A DNA stretch of 64,000 nt from Burkholderia sp. WP9. Its GTDB lineage: Bacteria; Pseudomonadota; Gammaproteobacteria; Burkholderiales; Burkholderiaceae. Location of the stretch: positions 1,302,001-1,366,000 of the forward strand of contig NZ_FNTG01000001.1 in NCBI RefSeq assembly GCF_900104795.1, given 5' to 3'. A program made the translations under genes and the position numbers. How positions within the stretch are numbered: the first letter of the stretch is position 1; the number at the start of each line of letters is the position of its first letter. Shown here piece after piece: positions 45,420-59,638 of the stretch. Below the pieces are notes generated by a model, which was not told where the DNA came from, did not search any database, and saw only the letters and a program-made list of their open reading frames with translations.

Positions 45420-46255
45420 TTTTGGGTCTAACCGGGAGAGATTGCAAGCGCCGGAAGGGCTTCAGCGGGTTAACGCGGATCATCCAAGCGGCCTTATTCG
45501 ACATCCTCGATTCTTATATAAGATATAAGAGTTGGCGTTACTGGCTTGTCGAACTTCGTGAAGATGAACCCGCGGGATTTTTCTGGACGCATCATCTCCG
45601 TCAGCACGAATGGAACGTCAATTCTCTGCGTAGCACGGGGATGTGGGAGCATGCGGGCAACACACGCCTCAACGAGGAGGGACGAGGGCGCGCGCATCGC
45701 GCGCGGGTATTGTGACGTGTGCTGCGCACAGACCTCGTTTAGCGAAAACTCGGGTTGCCTAGACTGCACTGCGCCCCCAGATCGGGATGCACCGGGTAAC
45801 TGATCCGGACGCTAGAACGATATGACACGCTGCTCGCGCCGCTTGTCTATGGCGAAGGCAGGGCGAGTGAATCCGGCGAGTTGCCGCTATCCCTGGTTGC
45901 ATTCGGCGTGGCCCGTCTTGCCGTACGCAAAAACGCACGTTATTCGCGCCAGTTGCTCTTCGAGACGGGCACGCTGGGATACCGGGCGAGCTGTACGATC
46001 CTTCGAGTCCTTATCGCTGTTTTGGGGCGGACCGAGATTGCAACTCGTAGCGGGTCGTTCACCTCTTGCCCCCGAGTGAAGATCAGACTGTTTTGCGTAT
46101 GCTACAGCGAGCACGTCCCGTGGGGTGTTTCTCCGGAAACAGACTGAATGAGACAGTCCCGGATTGACTACCGGAGAGAACGTCGCGGGTGTTCAACGGG
46201 AGGGCGACCAGCAAACCGACGGTTCAGACACTCTCATCATCCGCTCAAGTACATA
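45420..46255. other. host DNA left of the prophage, no gene recognised
   Basis: About 840 bp. Short frames exist (e.g. 45422-45715 and 45546-45803) but show no family features. At 45512-45529 TCTTATATAAGATATAAG, followed by GTTGGCGTTACT, resembles the region before aceA (35014-35046). The last 63 bp encode the host-derived end of the repressor frame. Confidence 0.45.
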
Positions 46256-46639
46256 ATTTGACATAAGATAAAGAGTTGCACTTTCAGCCGAGACTGACGC
46301 TGATCTGGCGGGCGAGGGAGCGGCGGCTAGCCCTAGTATGCACACGGTCAGTGACGCCGTGACTGCCGCTCCCGTCGCTTTTCCCCAAGCGTTCTCCCAC
46401 ACCTTGCGCATGAACGCATCAGGTGCAGATTCCGCCTTGCAAGCCGAGATAACCTCAAGCGGATCAATGCCCAGAAGCTCGGCCACCCGCGCGGCTGTAG
46501 CCTCATCAAAAACAGATAGCCCATTGCGGTATTTGCTGACCGCTTGGCGCGTCACACCCAGCATTTTCGCTGCGGCGTAATCGGAAGGAAGGTCTAGACG
46601 CTTCTTCAAAGCGTCCAGATATTGGATTGTCGTGCGCAT
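46193..46639 (-). CDS. prophage HTH repressor (DUF3693-like), C-terminus formed at the att site
   Basis: 148 residues in the prophage. Residues 1-65 are a Cro/CI-type HTH (SDYAAAKMLGVTRQAVSKYRNGLSVFDEATAARVAELLGIDP), as in phage regulators of the DUF3693 group. Residues ~88-108 (TGAAVTASLTVCILGLAAAP) are hydrophobic and could be a membrane segment. The frame crosses the left att repeat: residues up to N128 (LYLMSN) are phage DNA, the last 20 come from host flank. In the circular phage the same frame would continue at 59610 and end RRRFRKTTVWDNALAA (144 residues). It is divergent from the early + genes, so it is the probable repressor of the + operon. Confidence 0.82.
   Translation of the reverse strand: MRTTIQYLDALKKRLDLPSDYAAAKMLGVTRQAVSKYRNGLSVFDEATAARVAELLGIDPLEVISACKAESAPDAFMRKVWENAWGKATGAAVTASLTVCILGLAAAPSPARSASVSAESATLYLMSNYVLERMMRVSEPSVCWSPSR
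46256..46283. repeat. attL, dif-like Xer site
   Basis: 28 bp in dif layout on the + strand: XerD-like arm ATTTGACATAA, centre GATAAA, then GAGTTGCACTT as a poor XerC arm. The first 17 bp are repeated exactly at 59611 in the same orientation. The XerD-like arm reads TTATGTCAAAT on the other strand, close to the E. coli dif arm TTATGTTAAAT. Confidence 0.7.
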
Positions 46640-46863
46640 AGCCCCGTACCCTTTTTAAATCACCCAAAACGAAAGGTAGGCCAACGTCAACGTAGATGCA
46701 ACGACACATTCCGGTTGACGCGTAACAATAGATGGGACTATTCTCCTGACCAGTCGCCCCAAAACGCCAGCGGTTATCACCCACCCGACCGCGCTAGGAG
46801 GCCACCCAGCAAGGCGTGGGGCGACGTTTCTAAGGTCAGGGTAGGGGATAGAAGGGGTGCGGC
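46640..46863. promoter_or_regulatory. divergent early control region of the prophage
   Basis: 224 bp between the repressor and the first + gene. An inverted pair CGTCAAC (46685-46691) / GTTGACG (46714-46720) is a candidate operator; a further CAACG lies between. No clear -35/-10 pair can be chosen by eye. Confidence 0.45.
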
Positions 46864-46989
46864 ATGCGCAATACATCGTTACAAATCCGGCGTTCGTCCC
46901 TTGGTGGCTTCTGTGCGGTATCGCGCTTTGAGCGTCGCGCTCGCGTGCTGGCTGCAATCAATGCCGTGTTCCACTGGATGGGCGCATGA
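46864..46989 (+). CDS. small phage early protein (41 aa)
   Basis: Basic peptide MRNTSLQIRRSSLGG... ending HWMGA. Start 46864 follows GGGGATAGAAGGGGTGCGGC. Its stop overlaps the next start (ATGA), part of a chain of three tiny coupled genes. Function unknown. Confidence 0.5.
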   Translation: MRNTSLQIRRSSLGGFCAVSRFERRARVLAAINAVFHWMGA

Positions 46990-47072
46990 CTGCCGTGTTG
47001 CTGGTTACCTACCTCGCGGGCGCTGCCTCGGCCGCCTTCCTGATCGACATTTCGCTGAGGCTGCGCAAGTGA
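46986..47072 (+). CDS. single-TM phage peptide (28 aa)
   Basis: TAVLLVTYLAGAASAAFLID is one hydrophobic helix followed by the basic tail SLRLRK. Overlaps both neighbours (ATGA before, GTGA after). Function unknown. Confidence 0.5.
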   Translation: MTAVLLVTYLAGAASAAFLIDISLRLRK

Positions 47073-47170
47073 TCGATCCGGGCGTAGTTCTTTTCGCATT
47101 GGGTGCTGTGCTGGGCGCAGCGAGCGTTGTCGCCGGTTACCTGATTGCACGAAGCGAGGACCGGCAATGA
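47069..47170 (+). CDS. single-TM phage peptide (33 aa)
   Basis: GTG start overlapping the previous stop. VVLFALGAVLGAASVVAGYL forms one membrane helix with the charged tail ARSEDRQ. The stop overlaps the next start (ATGA). Confidence 0.55.
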   Translation: MIDPGVVLFALGAVLGAASVVAGYLIARSEDRQ

Positions 47171-47454
47171 GCCAATCGGCCGCGTTCGATGATCTCGGCT
47201 ACAACGCCGAAGGGCCGGAGGATGTTTCCTTTGGCTACGTGCCCGGCTCGGTCGGCCCGGCGCACGTTCTCCCTACACCGTGGACGGCTCGCCGTCGCGC
47301 GGAATTCGACAGGGCACGCGATGAATGCATGCCCGCCATCAATGCAGCACTGGACAAGTTCAAAGCGATGCGGCCGGGTCCGTCGCGTGCGCCGGTTGAT
47401 ACCGATGCGTACGGGCGGGCTCGCGCCCGTGTCCTTAAGGGGCGCGGCTGGTGA
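47167..47454 (+). CDS. phage protein of unknown function (95 aa)
   Basis: Soluble, mixed composition, with a proline- and charge-rich C-terminal half. It is coupled at both ends (ATGA with the preceding peptide, GTGA with the Rep gene). Possibly a replication accessory protein because of position; no motif supports that. Confidence 0.65.
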   Translation: MSQSAAFDDLGYNAEGPEDVSFGYVPGSVGPAHVLPTPWTARRRAEFDRARDECMPAINAALDKFKAMRPGPSRAPVDTDAYGRARARVLKGRGW

Positions 47455-49541
47455 TCCATCAAACCAACGAGGCATGGGCTAACGAACTGGTTGCGCCGCT
47501 TCCGGCGCGCTGGTGCGGAAAGCTGCTCGGTACGTGGGAGCGACGTAGAACCAGCTTCAACCCGGAAAAGCTCACCTCACAGAACGATGCGCAGCGGAAA
47601 GCAAACGAGGCGTTACGGGACACCGTAGCGCGCCTTTTGCCGTTCGCCGTCAATGACGACCTGACGCTAGACGCCGACGACGGCGCCGTGGTCGATGCAG
47701 CATGGAAGGGCGCGGAGCGATGCCGCGTGCGCCTGCTCGAAATCGAAGACATGCAACAGCACGGCCGCGATGCGTTGCGCGCGGCGGGCGTGTCGGCCGA
47801 CGAGGCGAATGCGGTCGAAAACGCCGAAGCGCGGGCAATGTTGTCGACCTTGTGCGAGGCCCGTGGAATATGGGCTCCCGCCAAGAAATACGACGATTTA
47901 CCCGCTGTTCGTCGGATGGTGGCGGCCAGGTGGTGGACCGGACAGTTGCGCAAGGCGCACGCCCGCGCGGTGGAGTCCGCGGCGATTGAGCTAGGCACCG
48001 TCAACAAGTCGCGCGACATGTACGTGTCGAATGAATCGCTGGCGGCCCGCAAGGCGCAGAACGAACGAAACGCGGCGACGCTTGAGGCGACCATCGCGCG
48101 CAACGTCGAGACGGAACAGGAATTCACGCTGGCGGAACTGGCGGCCAAAGGGCCGGCTAACCGTGCCATCAAGCGCGCGGAACTAATGACACGTATCAAT
48201 GGCTTCGAGCGCATCGCAATCGCGCATGGCCACGCTGGGCTGTTCCTCACGATCACCTGTCCGTCCAAGATGCACAGCCACAAGATCATCGGTGGCCGTG
48301 CGGTAAAGAACTCGAAGTACGACCACACCAAACCCAAAGATGCCCAGAAATATCTTACTGGCGTGTGGGCGCGAATCCGCGCTGCTCTCGCTCGCGCACA
48401 GATTGGCCTGTACGGTTTTCGCATTGCCGAGCCCATGCACGACGGCACACCTCACTGGCATTTGCTGGTCTTTTACCCGCCGGCCAATGATTCGAAGATC
48501 CGCGCCACTGTCCGCCGATACGCGCTCCAGATGGACGGCGATGAAGCGGGCGCGCAAGAGAGGCGGTGCGACTTTAAGACCATGGACCCGGAGATTGGTA
48601 CGGCGGCGGCCTACATCGCCAAATATGTGGCGAAGAACATCGACGGCCACAAGCTCGAGAAAGACCTGTTGGGTAATGACTCGCTTGATACGTCGGCCCG
48701 TGTCGAGGCGTGGGCCTCGCGCTGGCGAATCAAGCAATTTCAGCAGGTAGGCGGGCCGCCGGTCGGCCCGTGGCGTGAAATGCGCCGTGTTGAAAGCGTG
48801 CCGTCTGACGCACCGGCGCACGTGCTGAAGGCATTCAACGCGGTCAACAAGGTGGCGAAGTTCGAGGGCCGGGAAAACGCCTCGGTCGCGTGGGATCACT
48901 ACGTGGAAGCACAGGGCGGCGTTTTCTGTGGCCGCAACTATCGTATCCGTATTGCGACCGTGGCCAGCGACGCGCTAACGGCATACGGCGAGGAAGCGCC
49001 GGCAATGCCGATTGGCGTGCAATATCGCGAGGTCGCGAAGGTTCGCGACGCCATCGGCAACTGGATCGGCGTGTTGCCGCGTACCGTAATCATTGAGTCA
49101 AAGAGGTTCACGTGGGAAATAAAAAGACCAAACACGAATGCACGTTCGCGCTCGCAACCATCGTGGAGCGAAGCGGCGAAGCGTGGAGTATTTATCGCTG
49201 CACCGTATGTAGAAAGCCAAACGGCGAGCGCTTCAAGCGTGGCGCTGCCGGAACTGTGGCTGACGGGGGAGAAGTACGACCAGTGGAAGGCGAAGAACCC
49301 GGCCGCAGCGATTGAGTGGGAGTCGGGTTTGAAGCGCGAGCATCGCGCGCCTTGGACCTGTGTAAATAACTGTACGCCGGAGGGCGAAGATGGACGAACA
49401 ACCGACGTTGACGCAGTACGCAATACGCAACGAAACCGAGGTACGGCGGGTAGTGGAGGGGTCGGTAATGGTCCCGGCACCCGCAAAAACGCTTCTGAAG
49501 GAACAGGCCGCACTTATCCGCATGATGGCGGCGGCCATTGA
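47451..49541 (+). CDS. HUH replication initiator, phage GPA superfamily
   Basis: 696 residues, GTG start overlapping the previous stop. It nicks the origin and starts rolling-circle replication. The metal site is HWH (H335, H337) in GTPHWHLLVF and the catalytic tyrosines are Y388 and Y392 in AAYIAKYVAKNI, the superfamily I pair of P2 gpA and PM2 P12. LFLTITCPSKMH is HUH motif 1. The conserved C-terminal APWTCVNNC ends at about residue 643. The last ~50 residues look low-complexity and overlap another gene (49390); a further small gene (49112) is nested inside. Confidence 0.92.
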   Translation: MIHQTNEAWANELVAPLPARWCGKLLGTWERRRTSFNPEKLTSQNDAQRKANEALRDTVARLLPFAVNDDLTLDADDGAVVDAAWKGAERCRVRLLEIEDMQQHGRDALRAAGVSADEANAVENAEARAMLSTLCEARGIWAPAKKYDDLPAVRRMVAARWWTGQLRKAHARAVESAAIELGTVNKSRDMYVSNESLAARKAQNERNAATLEATIARNVETEQEFTLAELAAKGPANRAIKRAELMTRINGFERIAIAHGHAGLFLTITCPSKMHSHKIIGGRAVKNSKYDHTKPKDAQKYLTGVWARIRAALARAQIGLYGFRIAEPMHDGTPHWHLLVFYPPANDSKIRATVRRYALQMDGDEAGAQERRCDFKTMDPEIGTAAAYIAKYVAKNIDGHKLEKDLLGNDSLDTSARVEAWASRWRIKQFQQVGGPPVGPWREMRRVESVPSDAPAHVLKAFNAVNKVAKFEGRENASVAWDHYVEAQGGVFCGRNYRIRIATVASDALTAYGEEAPAMPIGVQYREVAKVRDAIGNWIGVLPRTVIIESKRFTWEIKRPNTNARSRSQPSWSEAAKRGVFIAAPYVESQTASASSVALPELWLTGEKYDQWKAKNPAAAIEWESGLKREHRAPWTCVNNCTPEGEDGRTTDVDAVRNTQRNRGTAGSGGVGNGPGTRKNASEGTGRTYPHDGGGH
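49112..49315 (+). CDS. nested small zinc-ribbon-like protein within rep (67 aa)
   Basis: A different frame inside the Rep gene. GTG start with AAAGAGG five bases upstream. HEC (residues 8-10) and CTVC (near 30) could ligate one zinc. The Rep frame over the same bases is serine-rich and poorly constrained in appearance, consistent with overlapping coding. Needs conservation evidence. Confidence 0.5.
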   Translation: MGNKKTKHECTFALATIVERSGEAWSIYRCTVCRKPNGERFKRGAAGTVADGGEVRPVEGEEPGRSD

Positions 49542-49572
49542 TTCGCTGAAACTGGCAAATCAGGCAGTGTAA
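49390..49572 (+). CDS. small phage protein overlapping the rep end (60 aa)
   Basis: ATG preceded by CGGAGGGCGAAG. MDEQPTLTQYAIRNETEVRR then an amphipathic helix PAKTLLKEQAALIRMMAAAIDSLKLA. It overlaps the last 152 bp of rep in another frame. Function unknown. Confidence 0.65.
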   Translation: MDEQPTLTQYAIRNETEVRRVVEGSVMVPAPAKTLLKEQAALIRMMAAAIDSLKLANQAV

Positions 49573-49621
49573 GGGGAAGCGGGCGACCCTTCGAGCCCGC
49601 ACATTAGAACGAGGTAGACCA

Positions 49622-49945
49622 ATGAGCAAGATTCTTGAGGCCATCGACGCACTGGCCCATAACGCGACGCATCCGAAGATTCTCACGGCGGCGCTGACCG
49701 AGATTCACGAAGAGTTCAAGGCGATCAAGGCGCGCATCGAAGGGCTGCAGGAGGTGAAGGCGCACGCGGCAGCGGCCGAAGATTCAGCGGCGGCCGCAAC
49801 GCGCGCGGCGCAGAGCGCGAGCGTAGCGGCCAATCAGGCGGCGCTCGACGCCAAGGCGGCAGTGGGCGACGTGTTGAACACGCCGGCCGCGCCGATCGTC
49901 CCGGAAACCGTCGGCGCGCCCGTCGTTCCGCCCGTAACCGCATAA
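49622..49945 (+). CDS. coiled-coil phage protein (107 aa)
   Basis: Start after AACGAGGTAGACCA. Residues ~20-80 are an alanine-rich coiled coil (EEFKAIKARIEGLQEVKAHAAAAE), then a proline/valine tail. Probably structural or scaffolding; no family recognised. Confidence 0.7.
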   Translation: MSKILEAIDALAHNATHPKILTAALTEIHEEFKAIKARIEGLQEVKAHAAAAEDSAAAATRAAQSASVAANQAALDAKAAVGDVLNTPAAPIVPETVGAPVVPPVTA

Positions 49946-49956
49946 CGGAGGCGGCC

Positions 49957-50271
49957 ATGGCGTATCTCGGGAAAGCGGACTGCGGGACGTGTGCGAACGA
50001 GGTCGACGTCCGCTCGAACGTGAGCGGCAAGGCCTACTACAAGTGCGGGCGGTGCGGCGTCGCCGTGCAGCACAAAGAGGAGCGCGGACACCGGCTTTTC
50101 ATGGCGACGGTACGGGCCGAAGCGGACCCGGATGAACCGCCGGCCGTGGTCCCCGATTCGCCGCGAATCGCGGAGCCGAAACCGGTCGCGAAACCCGGCG
50201 AATCACAGAAAAAAACCGATGCACCGAAGCCGCGCGGCGGCATCTTCGGCGGCATTCTCTCAGGAGCTTAA
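49957..50271 (+). CDS. zinc-ribbon phage protein (104 aa)
   Basis: CGTC and CGRC pairs (residues ~9-12 and ~30-33) make a zinc ribbon; the C-terminal half is proline-rich, ending in the hydrophobic GGIFGGILSGA that may touch membrane. Start after CGGAGGCGGCC; one base separates it from the next gene. Confidence 0.75.
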   Translation: MAYLGKADCGTCANEVDVRSNVSGKAYYKCGRCGVAVQHKEERGHRLFMATVRAEADPDEPPAVVPDSPRIAEPKPVAKPGESQKKTDAPKPRGGIFGGILSGA

Positions 50272-50799
50272 ATGGCAAAGGTCACAGATGCGACGCCGGT
50301 AGAGCCGGCCGTCGTGGATACGCGCGCCGACTCGACCGTGGACGTGCTGCAGGAAATCGCCCAGGAAGAAATGTCCGAACACGCGGGCATCGCCGCGAAG
50401 GCAGAAGCGGCCGAAGCGGCAACAATCGAATCGGAAGCGGCCGATGTGGCGGCAGGCTGGCGCAAGGCGCTCGGCGTCGCACGCGAAATGCTGATCGCGG
50501 TCATTCCGCCGCTCGATCCGGTGTGGAGCAATCCGCGTCTGGATGCGCTGTCGGTGGCGCTCGGGCGCTGCGATCAGGCGTACGGCTGGGGCGGGGCGGG
50601 CAAGCTGATCGGCCATCCGCTATTCGGCCTTGTGGCGGCCGGCGCGCCGATCGGCTACGGCACCTATCAGGTGGTCAAGCCGATGATGGACAAGGCCAAG
50701 GCAGAACAGGCGGCCAAGGCGGCGGCGGCGCTCAAGCCGGGCTCAATGACGCCGGAACAGCTTGCGGTCGCGCCGGGCGCGCCTTCTTTCGGGGCCTAG
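50272..50799 (+). CDS. phage membrane-associated protein (175 aa)
   Basis: Acidic alanine/glutamate-rich N-terminal half, then GWRKALGVAREMLIAVIPPLDPVWSNPRLDALS and a hydrophobic segment (LFGLVAAGAPIGYGTYQVV). The stop is one base before the ATPase start. Virion-membrane or packaging-vertex protein by position only. Confidence 0.7.
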   Translation: MAKVTDATPVEPAVVDTRADSTVDVLQEIAQEEMSEHAGIAAKAEAAEAATIESEAADVAAGWRKALGVAREMLIAVIPPLDPVWSNPRLDALSVALGRCDQAYGWGGAGKLIGHPLFGLVAAGAPIGYGTYQVVKPMMDKAKAEQAAKAAAALKPGSMTPEQLAVAPGAPSFGA

Positions 50800-50800
50800 C

Positions 50801-51439
50801 ATGGTAGCCGGCACGCAGAATGATGCCGACATAACGGCGGTAATCGGCGCAACCGGAAACGGCAAGGGCGTCTACATCAAGGGGCTGCTCAAGAGACTGC
50901 CGAAGTCGCGGCCGATCCTCGTCTGGTCGCCGCTCGAAGTAGAGAGCGACGATTACGCGGCGTTCATCGGCGGTGTCCGAGTGTTTTCCATCACCGAACT
51001 GGTCGCGGCGATCAAGGCAGGCAAAAAGCGGATAGTGCTTGTGCCGGATAACCCGGAGAACCGGCCGTTGTTCGATCGGTTTTGCCGCATCGCGTGGGAA
51101 ATGGACGGCTGGTGCATCGTGGTTGAGGAGCTTTCCGACTGCACGATGGCGTCTTGGGCTCCCCCAGCGTGGAAGAAAATCACGAAGGCCGGTCGGCATA
51201 AAGGCCTGAAGGTGATCGCGGCATGCCAGCGGCCGGCGGACTCCGACAAGTCGTTTCTCGGCAACGCCAGCGAGATTCGGTGCTACGCGGTCAACTGGCC
51301 CAGCGACCAGAAAGTGATGGCGGGGATCATGGCGGTGAAGCCTGACGAAATCGCAACGCTGCCGAAATTCCACTACTTCCACCGCGTCATGGAAACCAAA
51401 ACGACCCAGCGAGGCGTGGCGCAATTGTCGAAACCCTGA
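50801..51439 (+). CDS. packaging ATPase, P9/A32-like
   Basis: 212 residues. Walker A GATGNGKG (16-23, K22) and Walker B WCIVVEE (104-110, E109/E110), followed by a helical stretch and the polar VIAACQRPAD sensor-like segment. The size and motif spacing match the genome-packaging ATPases of tailless membrane-containing phages (PRD1 and PM2 P9). The position just upstream of the capsid gene agrees. Zot-type export ATPases of filamentous phages are an alternative, but this protein lacks the C-terminal TM and periplasmic part. Confidence 0.85.
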   Translation: MVAGTQNDADITAVIGATGNGKGVYIKGLLKRLPKSRPILVWSPLEVESDDYAAFIGGVRVFSITELVAAIKAGKKRIVLVPDNPENRPLFDRFCRIAWEMDGWCIVVEELSDCTMASWAPPAWKKITKAGRHKGLKVIAACQRPADSDKSFLGNASEIRCYAVNWPSDQKVMAGIMAVKPDEIATLPKFHYFHRVMETKTTQRGVAQLSKP

Positions 51440-51555
51440 AAAAAACCGTGATTCGCGAGGTCCGCGAATCGCCGCGAAACGCCGTGAATCACGAACAGTG
51501 ACCACGGCGTTTTTCTTTGTGATCCTGCGATCTCTTTCATCGTAGAGGGCAGGAC
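51440..51555 (+). promoter_or_regulatory. inverted repeats between ATPase and late genes
   Basis: The 116-bp gap contains several copies of CGCGA/ATTCGCG-like words (GATTCGCGAGG, CGCGAATCGCCGCGAA, GTGAATCACG). They could form a terminator or a late promoter region; no T-tract follows. Confidence 0.4.
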
Positions 51556-51744
51556 GTGTCAACTGGCGACAACTGGTTCCCAAGCCGTAACCGCATGGTT
51601 ATGGAGATTCTGGCAACGACCATCGGCGTCATCGGCGCATCGATCCTCATTTCGCGCATCCCGTTTATCAAACAACTGGTCGATGGCAATTCCATCTGGT
51701 CACTGACGAACGGCGCGAGTTCGACTACCACAACCACCTCCTGA
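51556..51744 (+). CDS. single-TM phage protein (62 aa)
   Basis: GTG start. One helix (MVMEILATTIGVIGASILIS) with basic residues before it and a Ser/Thr-rich tail. Likely virion membrane protein. Confidence 0.65.
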   Translation: MSTGDNWFPSRNRMVMEILATTIGVIGASILISRIPFIKQLVDGNSIWSLTNGASSTTTTTS

Positions 51745-52979: not shown

Positions 52980-53435
52980 ATGGGACTTTTCACCATGCCG
53001 GGCGGCTCGGACCCTAGCACGGACGATTCGGGCAGCACGGACGCAACCAGCGGCGACGGCGCGCTGTCGTCGCTGTTCGGTCTGAACGACGTGGGCAGCG
53101 GTTACGGCGTCACGACGTACACCGATCCGCCGCCCACCACGTCCGTGGCGGGCGACCTCGGGTCGTTGCAGTCGGGTTCGACCGCAACGCCAACGATTGA
53201 CCTGACGACCGCGTTTGCGGACACGCTCGGCACCATCGTTGCGATTGATTCGATCAACTCGCAGGCATCGACCACGGGCATCGGCTACTACAAGGCCGCC
53301 AACGGGCAGGTGTACGCGGTAGGCACCGGGCCGGGACCGGGCAGCGCAGTGGTTAGCGCCATGCCGGGCAACCTGCTGTTCTGGCTGCTGATCATCGGCG
53401 GTGCGGTGCTGTTCGCGAAGGAGGAAAAGCTGTGA
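52980..53435 (+). CDS. phage protein with C-terminal TM (151 aa)
   Basis: Start after GGAGGTAACAGAC. Low-complexity Gly/Ser/Asp N-terminus, middle domain GIGYYKAANGQVYAVG, and a tail anchor NLLFWLLIIGGAVLFAKEEKL. Likely anchored in the virion membrane with the bulk facing one side. Confidence 0.72.
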   Translation: MGLFTMPGGSDPSTDDSGSTDATSGDGALSSLFGLNDVGSGYGVTTYTDPPPTTSVAGDLGSLQSGSTATPTIDLTTAFADTLGTIVAIDSINSQASTTGIGYYKAANGQVYAVGTGPGPGSAVVSAMPGNLLFWLLIIGGAVLFAKEEKL

Positions 53436-53704
53436 GTACGCCTTTCTCGATGAGCGGGCCGACGACCTCGAACTACGCGGGGCCGTCCGATGCCGCAACC
53501 GACAACATCGTCACGTTTAACGACGGGTCATTCACCACGGCCGCCACGCCGACACCGGGCCTCACGGCCGGGCTGTCGAACGTGACGGGCGGCATTGCGT
53601 CGCTCGGCTCGGCTGTGTCGAACCTGACCAGTTCGGCCAGCGGCATTTTTATGCTGGTCGCGGTCGGCGGTGCGATATGGCTGTATCTGCGCAAAAAGCT
53701 GTGA
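53432..53704 (+). CDS. phage protein with C-terminal TM (90 aa)
   Basis: GTG start overlapping the previous stop. Ser/Thr/Gly-rich body and tail anchor GIFMLVAVGGAIWLYLRKKL. Architecture is the same as its neighbour. Confidence 0.72.
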   Translation: MSTPFSMSGPTTSNYAGPSDAATDNIVTFNDGSFTTAATPTPGLTAGLSNVTGGIASLGSAVSNLTSSASGIFMLVAVGGAIWLYLRKKL

Positions 53705-54069
53705 CCGCGCGCCGCGCGTCGGCGGATGAGATCCGGCCTTTCGTGCGGCGTGCGGAGCGCTTTTGTACCACCAGCGAGACGATCGAATCGCTGATCGCGG
53801 ACGGCGAATGCTGGGTTGTGGAGGAGGGCGGAACGGTTGTCGCGGGCTGGTCGCAGCAGTGGCAGGGAACGAACCTGCATGTGCTGGTGTACGGCGGTCA
53901 GGCGGATATCGATCTGTCGCTGGTACTCAATGCATGCCTCGAAGCGCAGCGGCCAGCAAGCGCCAGTTTCCAGACGCGTCGGCCGGGGCTGATTCGCAAG
54001 GGCATCGAACAGGGATACCGCGTCGTGAGGCATCTGCCGCGCGGCGTGGTCATGAAAAAGGAGTTTTGA
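53701..54069 (+). CDS. phage protein, possibly GNAT-like (122 aa)
   Basis: GTG start overlapping the previous stop (GTGA); an ATG at 53677 is possible but overlaps more. GECWVVEEGGTVVAGWSQQW and NLHVLVYGG look like the central strands of an acetyltransferase-type fold, and QTRRPGLIRKGIEQGYRVVR like its C-terminal part. No clear acetyl-CoA loop, so enzymatic activity is doubtful. Confidence 0.55.
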   Translation: MTARRASADEIRPFVRRAERFCTTSETIESLIADGECWVVEEGGTVVAGWSQQWQGTNLHVLVYGGQADIDLSLVLNACLEAQRPASASFQTRRPGLIRKGIEQGYRVVRHLPRGVVMKKEF

Positions 54070-54564
54070 ATGGCTGGCGGCAGCAGTTCTTCAAGCAGCA
54101 GCAAAACCAGCACGACCAGCCAGGACAACCGGCAGAGCGTGTCGGGCGGCACCGGCGTATCCACGTCGGGCAGCGGCAATAACATCACGGTCAACACGCT
54201 GGACGATGGCGCAATTACTGCGGCCTTCGGCACGGCGAATAGCGCCATCAATGCAGTGGTGACCGAGGGCACAAGCGCGCTCGACGCCAACACGCAGGTG
54301 TCGCAGGCCGCAATGACCAACTCGAACAGTATCGCGCAAACGGCAATCGGCGCGGTGCAGACCAGTTCAGCGAATTTCGCAAACCTGCTCGATCAGGCCA
54401 TGAGTGCGGATTCGAGCAATCTCGCGAGCGCATACGCGAACAACGCACAGACGCTTGCGACCGCCTATCAGGACGCCAAAACGGGCGACCAGCGAACCAT
54501 CGTTCTCGGCGGAATCATCATCGCGCTCGCGGCGCTGTACTTCGTCAGCCAGCGGAAGGCCTAA
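54070..54564 (+). CDS. phage protein, helical with C-terminal TM (164 aa)
   Basis: Serine run at the start (GGSSSSSSSKTSTTS), long Ala/Ser/Asn-rich helical middle and the tail anchor TIVLGGIIIALAALYFVSQRKA. Begins directly after the previous stop. Probably a virion membrane protein linking capsid and membrane. Confidence 0.7.
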   Translation: MAGGSSSSSSSKTSTTSQDNRQSVSGGTGVSTSGSGNNITVNTLDDGAITAAFGTANSAINAVVTEGTSALDANTQVSQAAMTNSNSIAQTAIGAVQTSSANFANLLDQAMSADSSNLASAYANNAQTLATAYQDAKTGDQRTIVLGGIIIALAALYFVSQRKA

Positions 54565-54566
54565 GC

Positions 54567-55244
54567 ATGCAGAACATTGGAGCGACGCTCACGCCTAACC
54601 AGCCATGGCCGTTTCAGGTGCGCGGCACGGTGCTGCAGATCATTTCGTCTGGAAACAGCGCGGGTCTGACGGTGCAATTCCTGCTGGGATCGCAGGTGCA
54701 GCACACCATTGAGGACGTGCTGACCGGCTGGAAAATCAAGCCTGCGGGCGGGTTCGACAGCATCACGATCGAGTCGGCGACGGGCGATACCGTCAGCGCG
54801 ATAGTGACGGCCGGCGACGTGGATATTCAGATTCTTGAGTCCAATTCGCAGGTCACCAACACCAGCGCGAATCCCGTGCCGGTGTCGCTGGTGAGCGAGC
54901 CGGGCGCGCCGGTCGCGGTGAACGTGGTGAGCGGCACCATCAACATGACCGCCACCAACGTCGGCATCGTGCCATCGGGCAGCGCGTCGGCAGACGTGGC
55001 ACCGGTAGCCGTCGGCACCTCGGGCGCGCTGCTGATCGCGGCAGCGGCAGGGCGCAAGCGCCTGATGATCCGCAACGCAGGCGCAGGCCAACTGGCGCTC
55101 ACGACGGCCGCCGGCACGACGTTCGCGAATGCGGCCGTGGTGCTGCAACCGGGCGACGTATGGCAGGAACGCGACGCGCCGCAAATCGCCTGGTATGCCG
55201 TGTCCGACGTGGGCACCACCGCTAATCTTCAAACGGTCTCGTAA
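54567..55244 (+). CDS. beta-rich phage structural protein (225 aa), vertex candidate
   Basis: Almost entirely beta-strand-like with two apparent halves: residues ~1-110 (PFQVRGTVLQIISSGNSAGL, GWKIKPAGGFDSITIE) and ~140-225 (AGRKRLMIRNAGAGQLALTT, VLQPGDVWQERDAP). Such proteins are often base or vertex components. It overlaps the spike gene by 1 nt (TAATG). Being next to the spike, it may be the penton or spike adaptor; inferred. Confidence 0.6.
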   Translation: MQNIGATLTPNQPWPFQVRGTVLQIISSGNSAGLTVQFLLGSQVQHTIEDVLTGWKIKPAGGFDSITIESATGDTVSAIVTAGDVDIQILESNSQVTNTSANPVPVSLVSEPGAPVAVNVVSGTINMTATNVGIVPSGSASADVAPVAVGTSGALLIAAAAGRKRLMIRNAGAGQLALTTAAGTTFANAAVVLQPGDVWQERDAPQIAWYAVSDVGTTANLQTVS

Positions 55245-56764
55245 TGAACAAGAAACGGTTTCTCGGCGCGGCGCTCGCGCTGTGCATGGCGGGTTCGGCC
55301 TTCGCGCAATCCGATCTGGTATCGGGACTCGCCGGGCGGCTGAATAACGCGGCGACCTATGGCGCGCGCTCGGTCGCGTACCAGAACACGGCAACCGGCG
55401 CGACGGCGCGTACGGTACAGCAGCGGCTGGACGACTCGATCAACCTGCTGGACTTCGGGGCAGACCCCACCGACACGACCGACAGCACGGCGGCGGTGAA
55501 TGCGTTCCTGACGGCGGTCAAGACGAGCGGCAAATGTGGGCGCATCAATTCGGGCAAATACAAGGTCACGTCAGCGCTCACGCTCGATCTTTCGACCATC
55601 TCTCCAAAGGGCATGTGCCTGTACGGCGAAGGCCAGTACACCAGCATGCTCGATCTGTCCACGGTTACAGCGTCGCCCGCCGTGCAGATCATCGACACCG
55701 GCAACGCGGGCGGCGGTGGCTTCTATAGCTCGTTCCATGACTTCGGCATCAAGGGCAATGTCGCGGGCACGCTGCTGCAACTCGGCAAGACCGACGCGAG
55801 CGATGCGCTCAACGAATTCGAGTTTCGCAATCTGTGGGTCGGCAATTCCAGCACGTCGGCTTCGGCCATCGCGATTCAGGTCAACTATGTGCTGAATACG
55901 CATTTCTTCGCAGTGATCGCGGCGAACAACGGGCACGGCGACGCGTGGCAACTGACGGCCGCCGCATTCGATGACTGGGTGGGCGGATCCGGAACATACG
56001 CGGACAACGGTTTCCACTGGACGGCGAGCGGTATCGGCTGTAGCTGCGGGCAGATCGCGGGCAATACGTTCGTGGGTCTGGACATGGAGGTCAACACCGT
56101 CAACCACGTGAAAATCGATACGTCGAACGCGCACGACAATACGTGGATGGGCGGCACGATGGTGTACACGTCGGGCACGTCATACGGCATTCAGGCGACG
56201 GCGGGGAACCAGAACCTGTTCACCGGCATTTTCATGAATGTGAGCGGCGGGGCGAGCTATTCGAATTTCTTCAACAGCAGCAACGCACAAGGCGTCGCAC
56301 TGCTGAACATGTTCGGCATGAGTGCAGGCCTGCAGATCAATGATCCATCGTTCAACGCGTATCTGTCGGCCGCACAGACACTCACTGCGGCAACGTGGAC
56401 GAAGCTCACATTCAACACGACCGATTACCAGAACGGCACGGGTTTCAGCACGTCCACCGGCCGCTTTACCGCAGTCGTGCCGGGGCGCTATGAGTTCCGA
56501 TGCCACATCAACGAGAACGCGACCAACGCGAGCGCGGTGACTGATTACGTCGGCCTGTACCGCAACGGATCGAACCTGCGCGCGACCGGTTTCGGCATTC
56601 CGGCCGGCACCAATTTTGAGGGCGGCGAAGTCACGGCGCAGATCGTCATGAGCGCGGGCGACTACGTGGAATGCTGGGCCAATCTGGCCGCAAGCAGCGG
56701 TTCGCCGCAGGTGCAGGGCACCAGCACCAACAGCTATTTCGACGGCAAGTATTTGGGGCAGTGA
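55244..56764 (+). CDS. beta-helix spike protein with C1q-like C-terminus and signal peptide
   Basis: 506 residues. Residues 1-22 (KKRFLGAALALCMAGSAFAQ) look like a Sec signal peptide. ARTVQQRLDDSINLLDFGAD is the usual start of a phage tailspike/pectate-lyase-like domain, residues ~70-360, with repeated strands. Residues ~370-506 (LSAAQTLTAATWTKLTFNTT, FTAVVPGRYEFRCHINENA) match a C1q/TNF-like trimeric head. It is the probable receptor-binding or depolymerising spike. The signal peptide is odd for a virion assembled in the cytoplasm. Confidence 0.8.
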   Translation: MNKKRFLGAALALCMAGSAFAQSDLVSGLAGRLNNAATYGARSVAYQNTATGATARTVQQRLDDSINLLDFGADPTDTTDSTAAVNAFLTAVKTSGKCGRINSGKYKVTSALTLDLSTISPKGMCLYGEGQYTSMLDLSTVTASPAVQIIDTGNAGGGGFYSSFHDFGIKGNVAGTLLQLGKTDASDALNEFEFRNLWVGNSSTSASAIAIQVNYVLNTHFFAVIAANNGHGDAWQLTAAAFDDWVGGSGTYADNGFHWTASGIGCSCGQIAGNTFVGLDMEVNTVNHVKIDTSNAHDNTWMGGTMVYTSGTSYGIQATAGNQNLFTGIFMNVSGGASYSNFFNSSNAQGVALLNMFGMSAGLQINDPSFNAYLSAAQTLTAATWTKLTFNTTDYQNGTGFSTSTGRFTAVVPGRYEFRCHINENATNASAVTDYVGLYRNGSNLRATGFGIPAGTNFEGGEVTAQIVMSAGDYVECWANLAASSGSPQVQGTSTNSYFDGKYLGQ

Positions 56765-56895
56765 TGAAAAACCACGTGATTTCGCTGCTTATGGTCGGAG
56801 CAATCGGCGTTGTAGCGCTGCTATGCACGCAGGCGGGGCCGGGCACGCATGGGCCGGTCTGCGGCGATCGCGCGGTGGTGTGGAGGTACTGGTGA
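56764..56895 (+). CDS. small membrane protein (43 aa)
   Basis: ATG overlapping the spike stop (TGATG). Hydrophobic VISLLMVGAIGVVALLCTQ, then a short Gly/Pro tail. Its stop overlaps the next start. Function unknown. Confidence 0.55.
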   Translation: MKNHVISLLMVGAIGVVALLCTQAGPGTHGPVCGDRAVVWRYW

Positions 56896-57527
56896 TGGAA
56901 AACAACCAGGCGGGTTTGGTGCTGCTGCTGGTCGCAATCGCGGCGGCGGTACTGTTTTTGGGCGATAGCGGGTCGTCGGATAGCGGCGGCGATCAGGACG
57001 TTTCAGGCGGCGCACTCGGCGGCGCAACGGGGGATTTGATGGACCTATTTGGCAGCAGCACGGGCGCGAACGGTGGCAACCGGTCGGCCTTTCTCGCGAT
57101 GATCGGACAGAGCGAAGTTGGCGCGGCACTGATCGGTGAAACCGACGGCGGCTATAACGTGCTGGTCGGCTCGACGCCGGGCAACCCGATGACGTTCAGC
57201 GATTACAGCACGCATCCAGACATTCTCAACCAGCAATACGATTCGACGGCGGCCGGGCTGTACCAGATCAATTTCCCGACGTTCAAGACGCTGCGGAGCC
57301 AGACCGGACTCACGGATTTCAGCCCGGCCACGCAGGACGCCATGGCTATCCAGTTGATCACGAACAAGGGCGCGCTCGCGGACGTGGACGCAGGGAATTT
57401 CGCGTCGGCCGTGCAGAAGTGCGGGCCGGTGTGGGCGAGCCTCGGATACAACAACTACGGACAGCCGACGAACCAGCTTGAGACTTTGCAGGCGTGGTAT
57501 CAGGCTGCAGGAGGGGCCGTCGCATGA
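56895..57527 (+). CDS. membrane-anchored lytic transglycosylase, lambda R-type
   Basis: 210 residues. N-terminal TM helix (GLVLLLVAIAAAVLFLG), Gly/Ser-rich linker to ~60, then a domain closely resembling lambda endolysin R: likely catalytic Glu near E74 (IGQSEVG), DGGYNVLVGSTPGNPMTFSD, STAAGLYQINFPTFKTLR, LTDFSPATQDAMAIQLI and CGPVWASL. In membrane-containing phages a virion transglycosylase helps DNA entry (PRD1 P7); this copy may serve entry, lysis or both. The TM anchor with the enzyme outside fits. Confidence 0.88.
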   Translation: MENNQAGLVLLLVAIAAAVLFLGDSGSSDSGGDQDVSGGALGGATGDLMDLFGSSTGANGGNRSAFLAMIGQSEVGAALIGETDGGYNVLVGSTPGNPMTFSDYSTHPDILNQQYDSTAAGLYQINFPTFKTLRSQTGLTDFSPATQDAMAIQLITNKGALADVDAGNFASAVQKCGPVWASLGYNNYGQPTNQLETLQAWYQAAGGAVA

Positions 57528-57910
57528 GCAAGCAGAGCAACACGGTCGGCAACGTCGCCATCGGGCTGGCGGTGGTGGTGCTGGGGTTCGTGGTCTACAA
57601 GACGATGTTCAGCGGCAACGTGACCTACACGGGCGCGGCACCGACGCCCAAGCAGACGAGCACCGCGGCGAATCCGGCGGCGCTCGCGGCGTCGCTTGTG
57701 CCCACGGTCAATTCGCTCAGTTCGCTGTTCGGGAGCCTGAACAGCTACGTACCGGCGGCCGGAACATCGACGCTCGGCGGGCTGGACCAGACCTATACGT
57801 CGGCGGCCTACAACCCGGATGCGATCAGTAGCGCCATCTCGTCGGACACAACGGCATCCATGGCGAGCGCGGGAGAAAGTGACCTCAATTCGTGGGGCTT
57901 CTCGCTGTGA
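57524..57910 (+). CDS. single-TM phage protein (128 aa)
   Basis: ATG overlapping the previous stop. N-terminal helix NVAIGLAVVVLGFVVYKTMF and a Ser/Ala/Thr-rich remainder. Likely minor virion membrane protein. Confidence 0.68.
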   Translation: MSKQSNTVGNVAIGLAVVVLGFVVYKTMFSGNVTYTGAAPTPKQTSTAANPAALAASLVPTVNSLSSLFGSLNSYVPAAGTSTLGGLDQTYTSAAYNPDAISSAISSDTTASMASAGESDLNSWGFSL

Positions 57911-58191
57911 GCGTGAAAGACGACGCCATTGAGATCACCGTTGCGGTGGTCGCGCTCGCGCTCGCCGTCTGGTACATCGAATCGCGGTTCAAGGCGGCCG
58001 GCGGCGTCACGGGACTGTCGTCGTCGCTATTCAGCTACGCGACGGGTTCCCTGTTCAGCGGCGGCGATCCAACGCCGAGCATGGGCGCGATCCCGGACCA
58101 GACCACGCTCAACACCACTAACGCCACGTCGTCTGATACGGTGAATTCGCTGCTGAATTCCAGCCTGACGATGCAGTCAATCGGGATGTAG
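57907..58191 (+). CDS. single-TM phage protein (94 aa)
   Basis: GTG start overlapping the previous stop. Helix IEITVAVVALALAVWYIESR then a Ser/Thr-rich tail, the same plan as its neighbour. Confidence 0.66.
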   Translation: MSVKDDAIEITVAVVALALAVWYIESRFKAAGGVTGLSSSLFSYATGSLFSGGDPTPSMGAIPDQTTLNTTNATSSDTVNSLLNSSLTMQSIGM

Positions 58192-58193
58192 CC

Positions 58194-58661
58194 ATGAGCA
58201 TCATTACTGACCTCATCGCGCCGGGCGGCGGCGTCGCGGACCTGATCAGCACGGTAATCAAGCGCGTGTGGCCAGACAAGGAAGCGCAGCAGCAGGCCCA
58301 GCAGCAATTTGAACTGCAGTTGCTGCAGATGCAGCAGCGCGGTGAGCTGGACCAGTTCGACGGACAGATCAAGCTCGCGCTCGCGCAGGTGCAGACCAAC
58401 AACACCGAAGCGGCGAATAGCAATTTCTTCGTGTCGGGCGCGCGGCCAGCGGTGATGTGGGTGTGTACGGTCGGGCTTGCGTACCAGATTCTGGCGCGGC
58501 CGATGCTCATGTGGGCGTCGATCGGCTGGTGGCACATTCCGATTCCGCCGGCCATCGACAACAACACACTGATGACGCTGCTCATTGGGCTGCTCGGCCT
58601 CGGCACGCACATGATGGTGGAAAACGTGCAGCAGGCCCGCCAAGGGGCTGGCAATGGCTGA
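58194..58661 (+). CDS. three-TM holin
   Basis: 155 residues. A glutamine-rich coiled-coil N-terminal half (KEAQQQAQQQFELQLLQMQQ) precedes three hydrophobic segments (AVMWVCTVGLAYQILARPML, MWASIGWWHIPIP and TLMTLLIGLLGLGTHMMV). This is the layout of the GTA/phage 3TM holin family. It would release the transglycosylase or depolarise the membrane at lysis. Confidence 0.8.
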   Translation: MSIITDLIAPGGGVADLISTVIKRVWPDKEAQQQAQQQFELQLLQMQQRGELDQFDGQIKLALAQVQTNNTEAANSNFFVSGARPAVMWVCTVGLAYQILARPMLMWASIGWWHIPIPPAIDNNTLMTLLIGLLGLGTHMMVENVQQARQGAGNG

Positions 58662-58878
58662 CAGCGTATCGAAATGGGCTGGCTTGGCTGGCATCGCGGT
58701 CACGGCGGGAACGCTGATCTGGCAAATGTCCGGGATCGCGCACGACGTGGGCGAGGTGCGCGTGGCCGTGACGGACCTGCGCACCACGGAAAAGGGAACC
58801 GACGAACGGCTTTACGCGCTGGAAAGCCGTGTTGTCAAACTTGAGACCAGCGTGTCACTGATGGAGAAAAGCGAATGA
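58654..58878 (+). CDS. TM plus coiled-coil phage protein, spanin- or Rz-like position (74 aa)
   Basis: One N-terminal helix (AGLAGIAVTAGTLIWQMSG) and a coiled coil (DLRTTEKGTDERLYALESRVVKLETSVSLMEK). It overlaps the holin gene by 8 nt. A lysis accessory role follows from position and shape only. Confidence 0.65.
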   Translation: MADSVSKWAGLAGIAVTAGTLIWQMSGIAHDVGEVRVAVTDLRTTEKGTDERLYALESRVVKLETSVSLMEKSE

Positions 58879-58937
58879 CCAAGCATCGACGCCGCCGCGA
58901 ACGGGACAGCAAAGGCCGCTTCAAGCGTAGCCGGTAG
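58875..58937 (+). CDS. tiny basic phage peptide (20 aa)
   Basis: ATGA overlap with the preceding gene; MTKHRRRRERDSKGRFKRSR, half of it Arg/Lys. The RDSKGRFKR ending is often seen in small phage proteins. Possibly nucleic-acid binding. Last gene of the + operon, directly followed by a terminator. Confidence 0.55.
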   Translation: MTKHRRRRERDSKGRFKRSR

Positions 58938-58966
58938 AAAAAAGCCCCTATTTCAGGGGCTTTTTT
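58938..58966. terminator. bidirectional terminator between convergent prophage operons
   Basis: AAAAAAGCCCCT - ATTTC - AGGGGCTTTTTT hairpin with A and T tracts on both sides, so it can end the + late operon and the minus operon. It also overlaps the stop of the minus gene. Confidence 0.92.
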
Positions 58967-59181
58967 CATTGTGCGGCGGGAAGGTAGACGGCGCGCTCGG
59001 CGTCGGGGCCGTGTGCCAGCGTAGTGAAGGCTTCGCGCGTCATCATGTAAAGCTTGCCATCGAGTCGAACGCGAAAAAACGCCGCGTCGCGAACGTCGTC
59101 AAAATAGCCGCATGCATCGTCAAACTTGGAGGCGAGGAGCCAGCTGTCTGCAGGAGGGTCGCGGAGATCAAGGTCTGTCAT
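58966..59181 (-). CDS. prophage minus-operon protein (71 aa)
   Basis: Acidic soluble protein (DSWLLASKFDDACGYFDDVRDAAFFRVRLDGKLYMMTREAF). The ATG overlaps the stop of the preceding TM peptide (ATGA). In the circular phage this would be the last gene of the repressor operon. Function unknown. Confidence 0.7.
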   Translation of the reverse strand: MTDLDLRDPPADSWLLASKFDDACGYFDDVRDAAFFRVRLDGKLYMMTREAFTTLAHGPDAERAVYLPAAQ

Positions 59182-59273
59182 TCGAGATTCTCAGGATCAA
59201 TTTTCCGGCCGCCAAACAGCCAGAAAAGGGAGGCGCCAACGGCGGCGATGACGGTGATGATAGCGCGTTTCAT
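59178..59273 (-). CDS. single-TM peptide (31 aa)
   Basis: MKRAIITVIAAVGASLFWLF then a charged tail (GGRKIDPENLE). Overlaps both neighbours by 4 nt. Function unknown. Confidence 0.62.
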   Translation of the reverse strand: MKRAIITVIAAVGASLFWLFGGRKIDPENLE

Positions 59274-59545
59274 TTGAGGCCTAGACGGCGATTGAGGAAC
59301 GCCCGCCGTGCGCGGGCGTTTTCTATGGTGGTGTCGAACGTGCCGGCGAGCTTCGCGCGGGCGACCTTCCCGGCCACGTCCCAATGTCGTATGTAGTACG
59401 CCATGCGTTGCTCGCTGATTGCGAAGCCAGGCGCAAGGGCGGACACCCAAAGCTCCAAATCTTCATACGTAACAACGACTTGGCCGAACAGATCAAGCAT
59501 TGCAAACCCCGGAAAAGCGAAGCGGGGAAAAGAAGCGTTTTGCAT
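59270..59545 (-). CDS. prophage minus-operon protein (91 aa)
   Basis: FGQVVVTYEDLELWVSALAP, then AYYIRHWDVAGKVARAKLAGTF. I recall similar small proteins in Burkholderia phages, function unknown. In the circular phage it lies 14 nt after the end of the repressor frame. An internal ATG at 59500 is an alternative start. Confidence 0.72.
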   Translation of the reverse strand: MQNASFPRFAFPGFAMLDLFGQVVVTYEDLELWVSALAPGFAISEQRMAYYIRHWDVAGKVARAKLAGTFDTTIENARARRAFLNRRLGLK

Positions 59546-59559
59546 ACCTTGATCGAAGC

Positions 59560-59619
59560 TTAGGCGGCCAGTGCGTTATCCCATACTGTGGTTTTCCTGA
59601 ACCGACGACGATTTGACAT
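59560..59619 (-). other. phage-encoded 3' end of the repressor gene (displaced)
   Basis: The minus frame LYLMSN then RRRFRKTTVWDNALAA and TAA, in register with the repressor frame at the left att repeat. In the prophage it has no promoter or start of its own apart from the ATG within the repeat. The C-terminus ALAA equals the end of the E. coli ssrA tag recognised by ClpXP/ClpAP. Confidence 0.65.
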
Positions 59620-59638
59620 AAGATAAATTATCACCCAT
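59611..59638. repeat. attR, dif-like Xer site
   Basis: On the + strand ATTTGACATAA, GATAAA, TTATCACCCAT. On the minus strand the outer arm reads ATGGGTGATAA, which shares the ATAA end of the XerC arm of dif. The first 17 bp equal attL. The right arm is presumed host DNA, so this reconstructs attB. Confidence 0.7.

What the first reader, a model, noticed from the sequence alone, without database searches (positions are those of the whole stretch)
46193..59638. Integration appears to swap the C-terminus of the prophage repressor, removing an ssrA-like tail
Seen: the 17-bp repeat ATTTGACATAAGATAAA lies inside the repressor frame at 46256 and, in the same reading register, at 59611. Joining the ends as in a circle gives a repressor that ends RRRFRKTTVWDNALAA instead of the host-encoded 20-residue tail. 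ALAA is the C-terminus of the E. coli ssrA tag. Known: in mycobacteriophages such as BPs and Brujita, attP lies within the repressor gene and integration removes a C-terminal degradation tag (integration-dependent immunity). Inferred: the same logic here would make the repressor unstable in the lytic cycle and stable only once integrated, but with host Xer recombinases and in a tailless phage. I know of no described case of that combination.
Basis: partly seen in the sequence, partly recalled or inferred. Interest (0 to 1): 0.95.

Follow-up and report, generated by a model that had tools for sequence, protein, structure and literature searches.

The report
Repressor sheds disposal tag on integration
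A small tailless phage in a soil bacterium has the site at which it joins the chromosome inside its own repressor gene: the phage-side end of that gene spells a tail like the host's protein-disposal tag, which would likely get the free phage's repressor destroyed, while the end supplied by the chromosome has no such tag and would likely leave the repressor stable once the phage is integrated.

Summary
The 17-bp repeat is the XerD arm plus centre of a dif site; attL and attR share the 6-bp centre in 8 of 8 related PM2-like prophages, as a Xer crossover predicts. Read at each end separately, the repressor frame has host-coded tails at attL (0 of 8 end in AA) and a phage-coded tail at attR: 5 of 8 end in xAA (window ALAA); the other 3 keep AAND/AANC but end VSI, VSI, RVA. 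Chance gives AA in 70 of 2825 frames. Of 120 listed homologues, 19 of 20 on circle-sized contigs (11-14 kb) end in AA, 0 of 39 on contigs over 25 kb; on a tree the tail follows contig class rather than lineage. Several read AAND...LAA, close to the host's tmRNA tag ANDDTFALAA. So: integration-dependent repressor stabilisation as in mycobacteriophage BPs, but at dif, with no phage integrase found, in a tailless phage. Instability is inferred, not measured. A regulator shortened by integration at dif was already reported for filamentous phage RSS0 (PMC3816273); the ssrA-like tail there is what appears new.

The parts
46256..59627 (.). prophage, 13,355 bp from att core to att core, PM2-like (double jelly-roll capsid)
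   Evidence: 17-bp repeats; capsid protein, ATPase, replication protein; seven relatives share them
46193..46639 (-). repressor-like HTH gene, prophage form, 148 aa
   Evidence: HTH_3 30.8 bits (cut-off 23), PHROG transcriptional regulators; repressor function inferred
46256..46283 (+). attL, 28 bp: host-side XerD arm ATTTGACATAA, centre GATAAA, phage-side arm GAGTTGCACTT (not XerC-like)
46193..46255 (-). host-coded C-terminal tail of the prophage repressor, YVLERMMRVSEPSVCWSPSR and stop
   Evidence: 18 of 20 residues alike in P0010 and P0067
59611..59638 (+). attR, a complete dif-like site: XerD arm, centre GATAAA, XerC-like arm TTATCACCCAT
   Evidence: only hit on contig C1 with up to 2 mismatches to the pattern
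59560..59610 (-). phage-coded C-terminal tail RRRFRKTTVWDNALAA and stop, left at attR
59270..59545 (-). orf91, next gene after the phage-coded tail; would lie downstream of the repressor in the circle and be cut off from it by integration (conserved part starts MLDLFG at 59500)
   Evidence: homologue beside attR in 7 of 7 relatives
47451..49541 (+). replication protein, Phage_GPA
   Evidence: 261.7 bits
50762..51439 (+). packaging ATPase, likely
   Evidence: phrog_2666 E 7.5e-24; Pfam Pox_A32 under its cut-off
51940..52953 (+). major capsid protein, P2_N and P2_C domains
56823..57527 (+). endolysin-like protein
   Evidence: phrog_90 E 8.9e-40
58194..58661 (+). holin-like protein
   Evidence: GTA_holin_3TM 93.2 bits

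Best explanation
The repressor gene of this PM2-like prophage straddles the dif site at which it sits, and recombination there, likely by the host's XerC and XerD, swaps the end of the gene: the phage-side end codes an ssrA-like tail (RRRFRKTTVWDNALAA) that is predicted to make the free phage's repressor unstable, while the host-side end codes an untagged tail that would leave the prophage's repressor stable. Steps: (1) shown by sequence: att core inside the repressor frame, same register at both ends, phage-coded tail at attR. (2) shown by comparison: the phage-coded tail is kept ssrA-like across divergent PM2-like phages of Burkholderiales, the prophage tail is not. (3) inferred: crossover by host Xer in the 6-bp centre. 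(4) inferred: ClpXP, perhaps with SspB, degrades the tagged form, so infection defaults to lytic growth until a copy integrates; excision gives the tag back. (5) inferred: the HTH protein is the lysogeny repressor. Integration would also separate orf91 from the repressor.
For: Exact repeat in frame. In 8 of 8 PM2-like prophages with both ends, attL and attR have the same 6-bp centre; the arm on the XerC side differs in 8 of 8 and the XerD arm in 7 of 8 (not in the window); a XerC-like arm ending TAA is at attR in 8 of 8 and at attL in 0 of 8. attR ends: ALAA, AYAA, RLAA, RMAA, PLAA, HRVA, VVSI, VVSI; attL ends 0 of 8 in AA. Null: 70 of 2825 frame ends are AA; 5 of 8 has P 5e-7. 19 of 20 proteins on 11-14 kb contigs end AA against 0 of 39 on contigs over 25 kb, Fisher 1.4e-14; the exception, P0008, is an NCBI protein of Burkholderia ubonensis. 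Prophage lengths are 11.2-13.4 kb. On a tree of the part before the att site (59 of those proteins plus the window) the tail state needs 14 changes (shuffled means 16.2-16.3), and in 6 independent pairs the tail follows contig class in 5.8 on average, opposite in 0, p about 0.03. The frame through dif differs (YLMSN; SYVKS) yet the tail stays in frame. Host encodes tmRNA tag ANDDTFALAA, SspB, ClpX, XerD. The tail is predicted unstructured, pLDDT under 50 at 106-144 of P0001. The logic is known from BPs (PMC4557955, abstract and introduction).
Against: No half-life, repression or circle was measured. 3 of 8 attR tails (the Burkholderia hosts) do not end in AA. The window's own tail lacks AAND. 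Tails such as AANDPRRLAA are one residue shorter than the host tag with its leading alanine, which might hinder SspB delivery. Most full-length homologues have a hydrophobic stretch (window: mean hydropathy 1.78, residues 89-107); if it spans the membrane, the tail would lie outside the cytoplasm, away from ClpXP. Contig length only stands in for free or integrated form, and its classes were set after the prophage sizes were known. The profile was built from 19 proteins of which 18 end in AA, so AA is over-represented overall, though this should not depend on contig length. att pairs were found by likeness to the core, so sharing of the centre is not wholly independent.
Confidence: 0.8

Rival explanations
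1. The C-terminal swap is real but changes what the repressor does (binding, partner, target genes), not its half-life, as proposed for phage RSS0.
For: RSS0 ORF13 goes from 156 to 130 aa on integration and its author proposed a functional switch (PMC3816273, passages). A second group of dif prophages (L124, L125, L126, L128; L125 typed as inovirus) has another phage-coded tail, LLRPAAS or RPATS. The AA-tailed proteins also keep basic residues right after the att core.
Against: What the PM2-like tails share is the extreme C-terminus AA and, in many, AAND, the two ends of the tmRNA tag; the tail is predicted unstructured.
Confidence: 0.1
2. The tail is a degron, but read by another protease: the hydrophobic helix spans the membrane and the tail is cut outside the cytoplasm (tail-specific protease) or by FtsH. 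This is compatible with the swap and the instability; only the protease differs.
For: Hydrophobic stretch followed by a proline-rich, signal-peptidase-like run in most full-length homologues, not in the 109-aa kin (likeness judged by eye). Recalled: tail-specific protease and FtsH also attack ssrA-tagged proteins.
Against: AAND copies the adaptor-binding half of the tag, which a periplasmic protease would not need; basic residues next to the tail argue against export (both recalled rules).
Confidence: 0.12
3. Selection acts on the operon: integration cuts orf91 off from the repressor promoter, and the tail is only the stub between the two genes.
For: orf91 lies right after the tail in the window and in 7 of 7 relatives; a regulator followed by a small gene also in Cf1c, VGJ, SMA6, SHP2.
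Against: A stub need not keep AAND or LAA among proteins 51-81% identical to P0001; the four inoviruses with the same layout have no AA end.
Confidence: 0.06
4. Chance: any tail would do and LAA is coincidence.
For: Tails are short; one case alone (2.5% for AA) would not convince.
Confidence: 0.01

Closest known systems
Integration-dependent immunity of mycobacteriophage BPs and clusters G, I, N, P
   Same: attP inside the repressor gene, shorter prophage form, viral form with ssrA-like C-terminus (PMC4557955, abstract and introduction)
   Different: [quoted passage not shown] here dif and likely host Xer, tailless PM2-like phage, and in many relatives an AAND element as well
Bifidobacterium prophages Bb423phi2 and 689b-1
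   Same: 18 viral C-terminal residues with ssrA-like tag, absent from the prophage form, inferred in silico (PMC6109161, passages)
   Different: integrase gene next to attL; actinobacterial host
Filamentous phages RSS0 and XacF1
   Same: dif-type attP inside the gene of an HTH regulator; host Xer; regulator shortened or split on integration (PMC3816273, PMC4076744, passages)
   Different: inoviruses; no ssrA-like tail named in the passages seen; regulators of Cf1c, VGJ, SMA6 and SHP2 (4 of 4 looked at) do not end in AA
Jorvik, NO16, PM2 (membrane-containing double jelly-roll phages)
   Same: dif-like att sites or proposed dif sites, Xer integration proposed (PMC10589892, PMC9966536, passages)
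   Different: in Jorvik non-coding DNA lies between attP and the HTH gene gp1; in PM2 the proposed dif overlaps the small orf b*, after the HTH gene gp c

Membership tests
Integration-dependent immunity (BPs type) | attP inside the repressor ORF near its 3' end | tested here: met
   8 of 8 prophages
Integration-dependent immunity (BPs type) | prophage form lacks the viral C-terminus | tested here: met
Integration-dependent immunity (BPs type) | viral form ends in an ssrA-like tag | tested here: met
   window ALAA; 5 of 8 prophages xAA, 3 of 8 not; 19 of 20 circle-sized contigs
Integration-dependent immunity (BPs type) | tagged form degraded, untagged form active | not testable with these tools
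   needs a bench
Integration-dependent immunity (BPs type) | phage-encoded integrase, itself tagged | tested here: not met
   no recombinase domain in 17 prophage ORFs scanned with Pfam; several small ORFs not scanned. So: works like, not filed as a member
Elements integrating at dif by host Xer | 28-bp dif-like sites sharing the 6-bp centre, XerC-like arm moved to attR | tested here: met
   8 of 8
Elements integrating at dif by host Xer | host XerC and XerD | tested here: inconclusive
   XerD over cut-off; next best Xer-like gene at C1:3424599 under it, not typed as XerC
Elements integrating at dif by host Xer | integration needs XerC/XerD | not testable with these tools
   needs mutants
PM2-like phages (Vinavirales) | P2-type double jelly-roll capsid protein | tested here: met
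   P2_N 77.5 bits, P2_C 42 bits, cut-off 25
PM2-like phages (Vinavirales) | membrane-containing virion | not testable with these tools
   no particle
DUF3693 (PF12472) | score over Pfam cut-off | tested here: not met
   16.8 against 21 bits
Full tmRNA-tag mimic (AAND plus LAA) | AAND element in this window's tail | tested here: not met
   window TTVWDNALAA; AAND in 7 of 20 proteins of the 11-14 kb class

The most novel reading that the evidence does not exclude
Tailless PM2-like phages of Burkholderiales have captured the host's ribosome-rescue disposal code: the viral repressor ends in a near-copy of the tmRNA tag (AAND...LAA), so ClpXP/SspB keeps it down until the cell's own chromosome-dimer machinery (Xer at dif) splices the tag off, making repressor stability a readout of integration at dif and a second, independent invention of integration-dependent immunity without any phage integrase.
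Probability: 0.65. Interest if true: 0.9.

Novelty: new variant of a known kind. Interest (0 to 1): 0.85.

Why it matters
It would extend integration-dependent immunity, described for tailed phages of actinobacteria, to tailless membrane phages without an integrase of their own, and tie the lysis-lysogeny choice to a host reaction at dif. It gives a sequence rule (dif core in the repressor frame, AAND/LAA at attR) by which free and integrated forms can be told apart in databases, and it makes the RSS0 hypothesis, that the regulator differs before and after integration, directly testable. It also explains why annotated prophage repressors of this family often end abruptly at MSN or M.

Tried and rejected
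Single-protein scans of viral contigs with the repressor and the capsid protein found no relatives; the capsid protein had no match in phages. Empty-site search by the left host flank in 141 genomes matched only the window's own genome, so the empty site rests on P0067. Rfam: two weak matches far under gathering score in 45000-61000 and no tmRNA, so the tail is not a piece of a tmRNA gene. Operator search in 46600-47200: only short repeats, the best a 9-nt perfect inverted pair 55 nt apart; one promoter-like site, near the shuffled mean. Defence models: none for 5 proteins. NCBIfam: no name for the repressor. Considered and rejected: inoviruses share the LAA tail (4 of 4 do not; L124-L126 and L128 end otherwise); lineage explains the tail. 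Proteins on contigs under 11 kb mix both tails, 22 of 48 AA, and cannot be assigned to a form. Rows dropped: one search binned 49 of the 67 proteins; the other 18 (the roughly 109-aa kin and the most distant ones, among them P0063, which ends LAAA on a 709-base contig) were left out by eye. One search used the 120 proteins listed of 376. One search used the 59 proteins of two contig classes plus the window.
Full report
What was claimed.

Check. ATTTGACATAAGATAAA is at 46256 and 59611 only, and the whole genome has no third exact copy. The HTH gene 46639..46193 (148 aa; HTH_3) reads ...ATLYLMSN through the first copy and ends in YVLERMMRVSEPSVCWSPSR. At the second copy the same register reads YLMSNRRRFRKTTVWDNALAA and stops at 59560. 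I read the two ends separately; the shared core fixes the frame. Protein P0001, 92% identical over 86% of the query, ends RRRFRKTTVWDEPLAA, so a near twin of the predicted 144-residue form exists. The tail at attL looks host-coded: it recurs, 18 of 20 residues alike, after a 65% identical repressor (P0010) and in a frame that looks like the empty site (P0067...LVIIYLMSNYVLERMMRVSEPLVCWSPS; at attR the host side reads ...WVII before YLMSN).

The element. Between the repeats lie a Phage_GPA replication protein, a likely packaging ATPase, a P2-type capsid protein, an endolysin-like and a holin-like protein. This is a PM2-like phage. The host is in the same genus as G035 and G080, which give the same match places as the records of L093 (Paraburkholderia fungorum) and L092 (P. 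saeva), so most likely Paraburkholderia. No recombinase domain was found in 17 prophage ORFs scanned; several small ORFs were not scanned.

The site. Seven further PM2-like prophages with both ends were found by dif pattern or repressor profile; 7 of 7 share replication protein, ATPase, capsid protein and orf91 with the window. Written as XerC arm, centre, XerD arm, attL and attR share the 6-bp centre in 8 of 8 although the centre differs between hosts (TTTATC, TTTATA, TTTATG, ATCACC, TTCACG). The XerC-side arm differs between attL and attR in 8 of 8; the XerD arm in 7 of 8, the window being the exception. attR has the ...TAA end of a XerC arm in 8 of 8, attL in 0 of 8. The pairs were picked by likeness to the core, so the shared centre is not wholly independent. 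Published dif sites of Burkholderia mallei and Ralstonia fit (PMC2731167, passages). So the phage brings a XerD arm and centre, and integration rebuilds a dif-like site at attR. In 4 of 8 hosts the XerD arm at attL reads TTATGTAA, an in-frame stop right after M; the arm at attR reads TTATGTCA in 8 of 8. The likely recombinase is host Xer; XerD passes its cut-off.

The tails. attR (phage-coded): RRRFRKTTVWDNALAA (window), RKRRARDTVSTLAYAA (L121), RRRRDVRTVSGLRLAA (L122), RKRYLRERTLSGLRMAA (L123), FRRNRRAEKAYGFPLAA (L127), RYRGRRAANCDRFHRVA (L160), KRRARRAANDGLFVVSI (L161), RRRARQAANDGYFVVSI (L162). attL (host-coded): 0 of 8 ends in AA; five stop at M or soon after, at YLM, HLM, HVM, HVM or YVMSNK. 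In the same eight regions 70 of 2825 open frames of 18 codons or more end in AA; 5 of 8 has P 5e-7; AAN near the end in 3 of 8 has P 8e-7, overstated because L161 and L162 are alike. Against the reading: the three tails from the genus of B. stagnalis and B. ambifaria (L160-L162) do not end in AA.

Proteins at large. A profile of 19 proteins (18 of them ending in AA; P0016 ends AVAI) found 376 homologues, of which 120 were listed. By length of the longest contig, ending in AA: under 5 kb 17 of 37; 5-11 kb 5 of 11; 11-14 kb 19 of 20; 14-25 kb 2 of 13; over 25 kb 0 of 39. Prophages measure 11.2-13.4 kb, so the third class is the size of closed phage circles; that they are circles is inferred, and the classes were set after those sizes were known. 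The exception P0008 is an NCBI protein of B. ubonensis. The profile favours tagged proteins in all classes alike. In the first list, found with the untagged window protein (67 proteins), 49 were binned: 6 of 6 on 13-14 kb contigs and 0 of 13 over 25 kb ended in AA, Fisher 4e-5; 18 were left out by eye. On a tree of the part before the att site, with 59 proteins of the two classes plus the window, the tail state needs 14 changes (shuffled means 16.2-16.3; 40 and 57 of 500 shuffles as low), so it is hardly a clade mark; in 6 independent pairs the tail goes with contig class in 5.8 on average and in 0 against it, median p 0.03. Few columns, 7 starred branches of 54.

Likeness to the host tag. ARAGORN reads the tmRNA tag of this genome as ANDDTFALAA, preceded by the alanine charged on tmRNA (general knowledge). 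Viral tails of relatives read AANDPRRLAA, AANDEKRLAA, AANDAKILAA; AAND is in 7 of 20 proteins of the 11-14 kb class. SspB and ClpX are encoded. The window's tail has only the second half. The tag is kept although the frame through dif differs, YLMSN in some and SYVKS in others, which needs a compensating shift.

Structure. AlphaFold of P0001 with the 19 sequences (pTM 0.57) gives a confident N-terminal part (residues 1-80, block means 91-94), a long helix to 105 and a disordered rest (under 50 from 106): an exposed end. The hydrophobic part of that helix leaves open a membrane-bound protein and another protease.

Mechanism and rivals. Best: unstable repressor in the free phage, stable after integration. 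Shown: swap of coding ends and conservation of the tag. Inferred: Xer catalysis, degradation, repression. Rivals are given in their sections.

What is known. BPs: attP in the repressor gene, 136-residue viral form degraded by an ssrA-like tag, 103-residue prophage form active, integrase with a signal for proteolysis (PMC4557955, abstract and introduction). Bifidobacterium prophages alike, in silico (PMC6109161, passages). RSS0: attP (dif) in ORF13, 156 to 130 aa, host Xer (PMC3816273, passages); XacF1: attP in ORF12 (PMC4076744, passages). Nine searches listed, as far as titles, starts of abstracts and the passages opened show, no paper on an ssrA-like repressor tail in a dif-integrating or tailless phage; the listings are capped and the library lacks most subscription journals. 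The case works like the BPs system but is not filed under it because no phage integrase was found.

Noticed in passing
60074-63410: Three tyrosine recombinase genes in a row just right of attR; matches with the same scores lie in the same order at C2:37161-39891 and C3:167256-169986, so probably one recombinase-trio element in three copies, unrelated to the prophage.
   Followed up: partly
L124, L125, L126, L128: Other prophages at dif (L125 typed as inovirus by Zot and secretin; the others not typed) with the att site in the regulator frame and another phage-coded tail...LLRPAAS, LLRPATS or AYRPATS.
   Followed up: partly
L104, L110, L109, L116: HTH regulators whose C-termini run into what looks like tRNA sequence (SSWRKGGDSNPR, ARVGIEPAYADLQSAA), perhaps the same arrangement with a tRNA as att site (the tRNA reading is recalled, not tested).
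   Followed up: no
L025, L026, L028-L031, L075, L095: Kin of the repressor of about 109 aa that stop shortly before a dif-like frame (FYLM, LHIMSN and the like); L075 lies on a 40.7-kb viral contig.
   Followed up: no
L172 (NZ_CP018837): An 11.9-kb circular 'plasmid' of Vibrio gazogenes carries a gene annotated major capsid protein P2 and a related HTH gene: probably a PM2-like phage genome.
   Followed up: no
59270-59545: orf91, 52-80% identical in 7 of 7 relatives, sits beside attR; possible partner or antirepressor that integration would cut off from the repressor.
   Followed up: partly
46319-46375 (repressor residues 89-107): Hydrophobic stretch followed by a proline-rich, signal-peptidase-like run in most full-length homologues, absent from the 109-aa kin.
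   Followed up: partly
59835-59945: Repeated GGCGTAATGGCGCCA-like units just right of attR.
   Followed up: no
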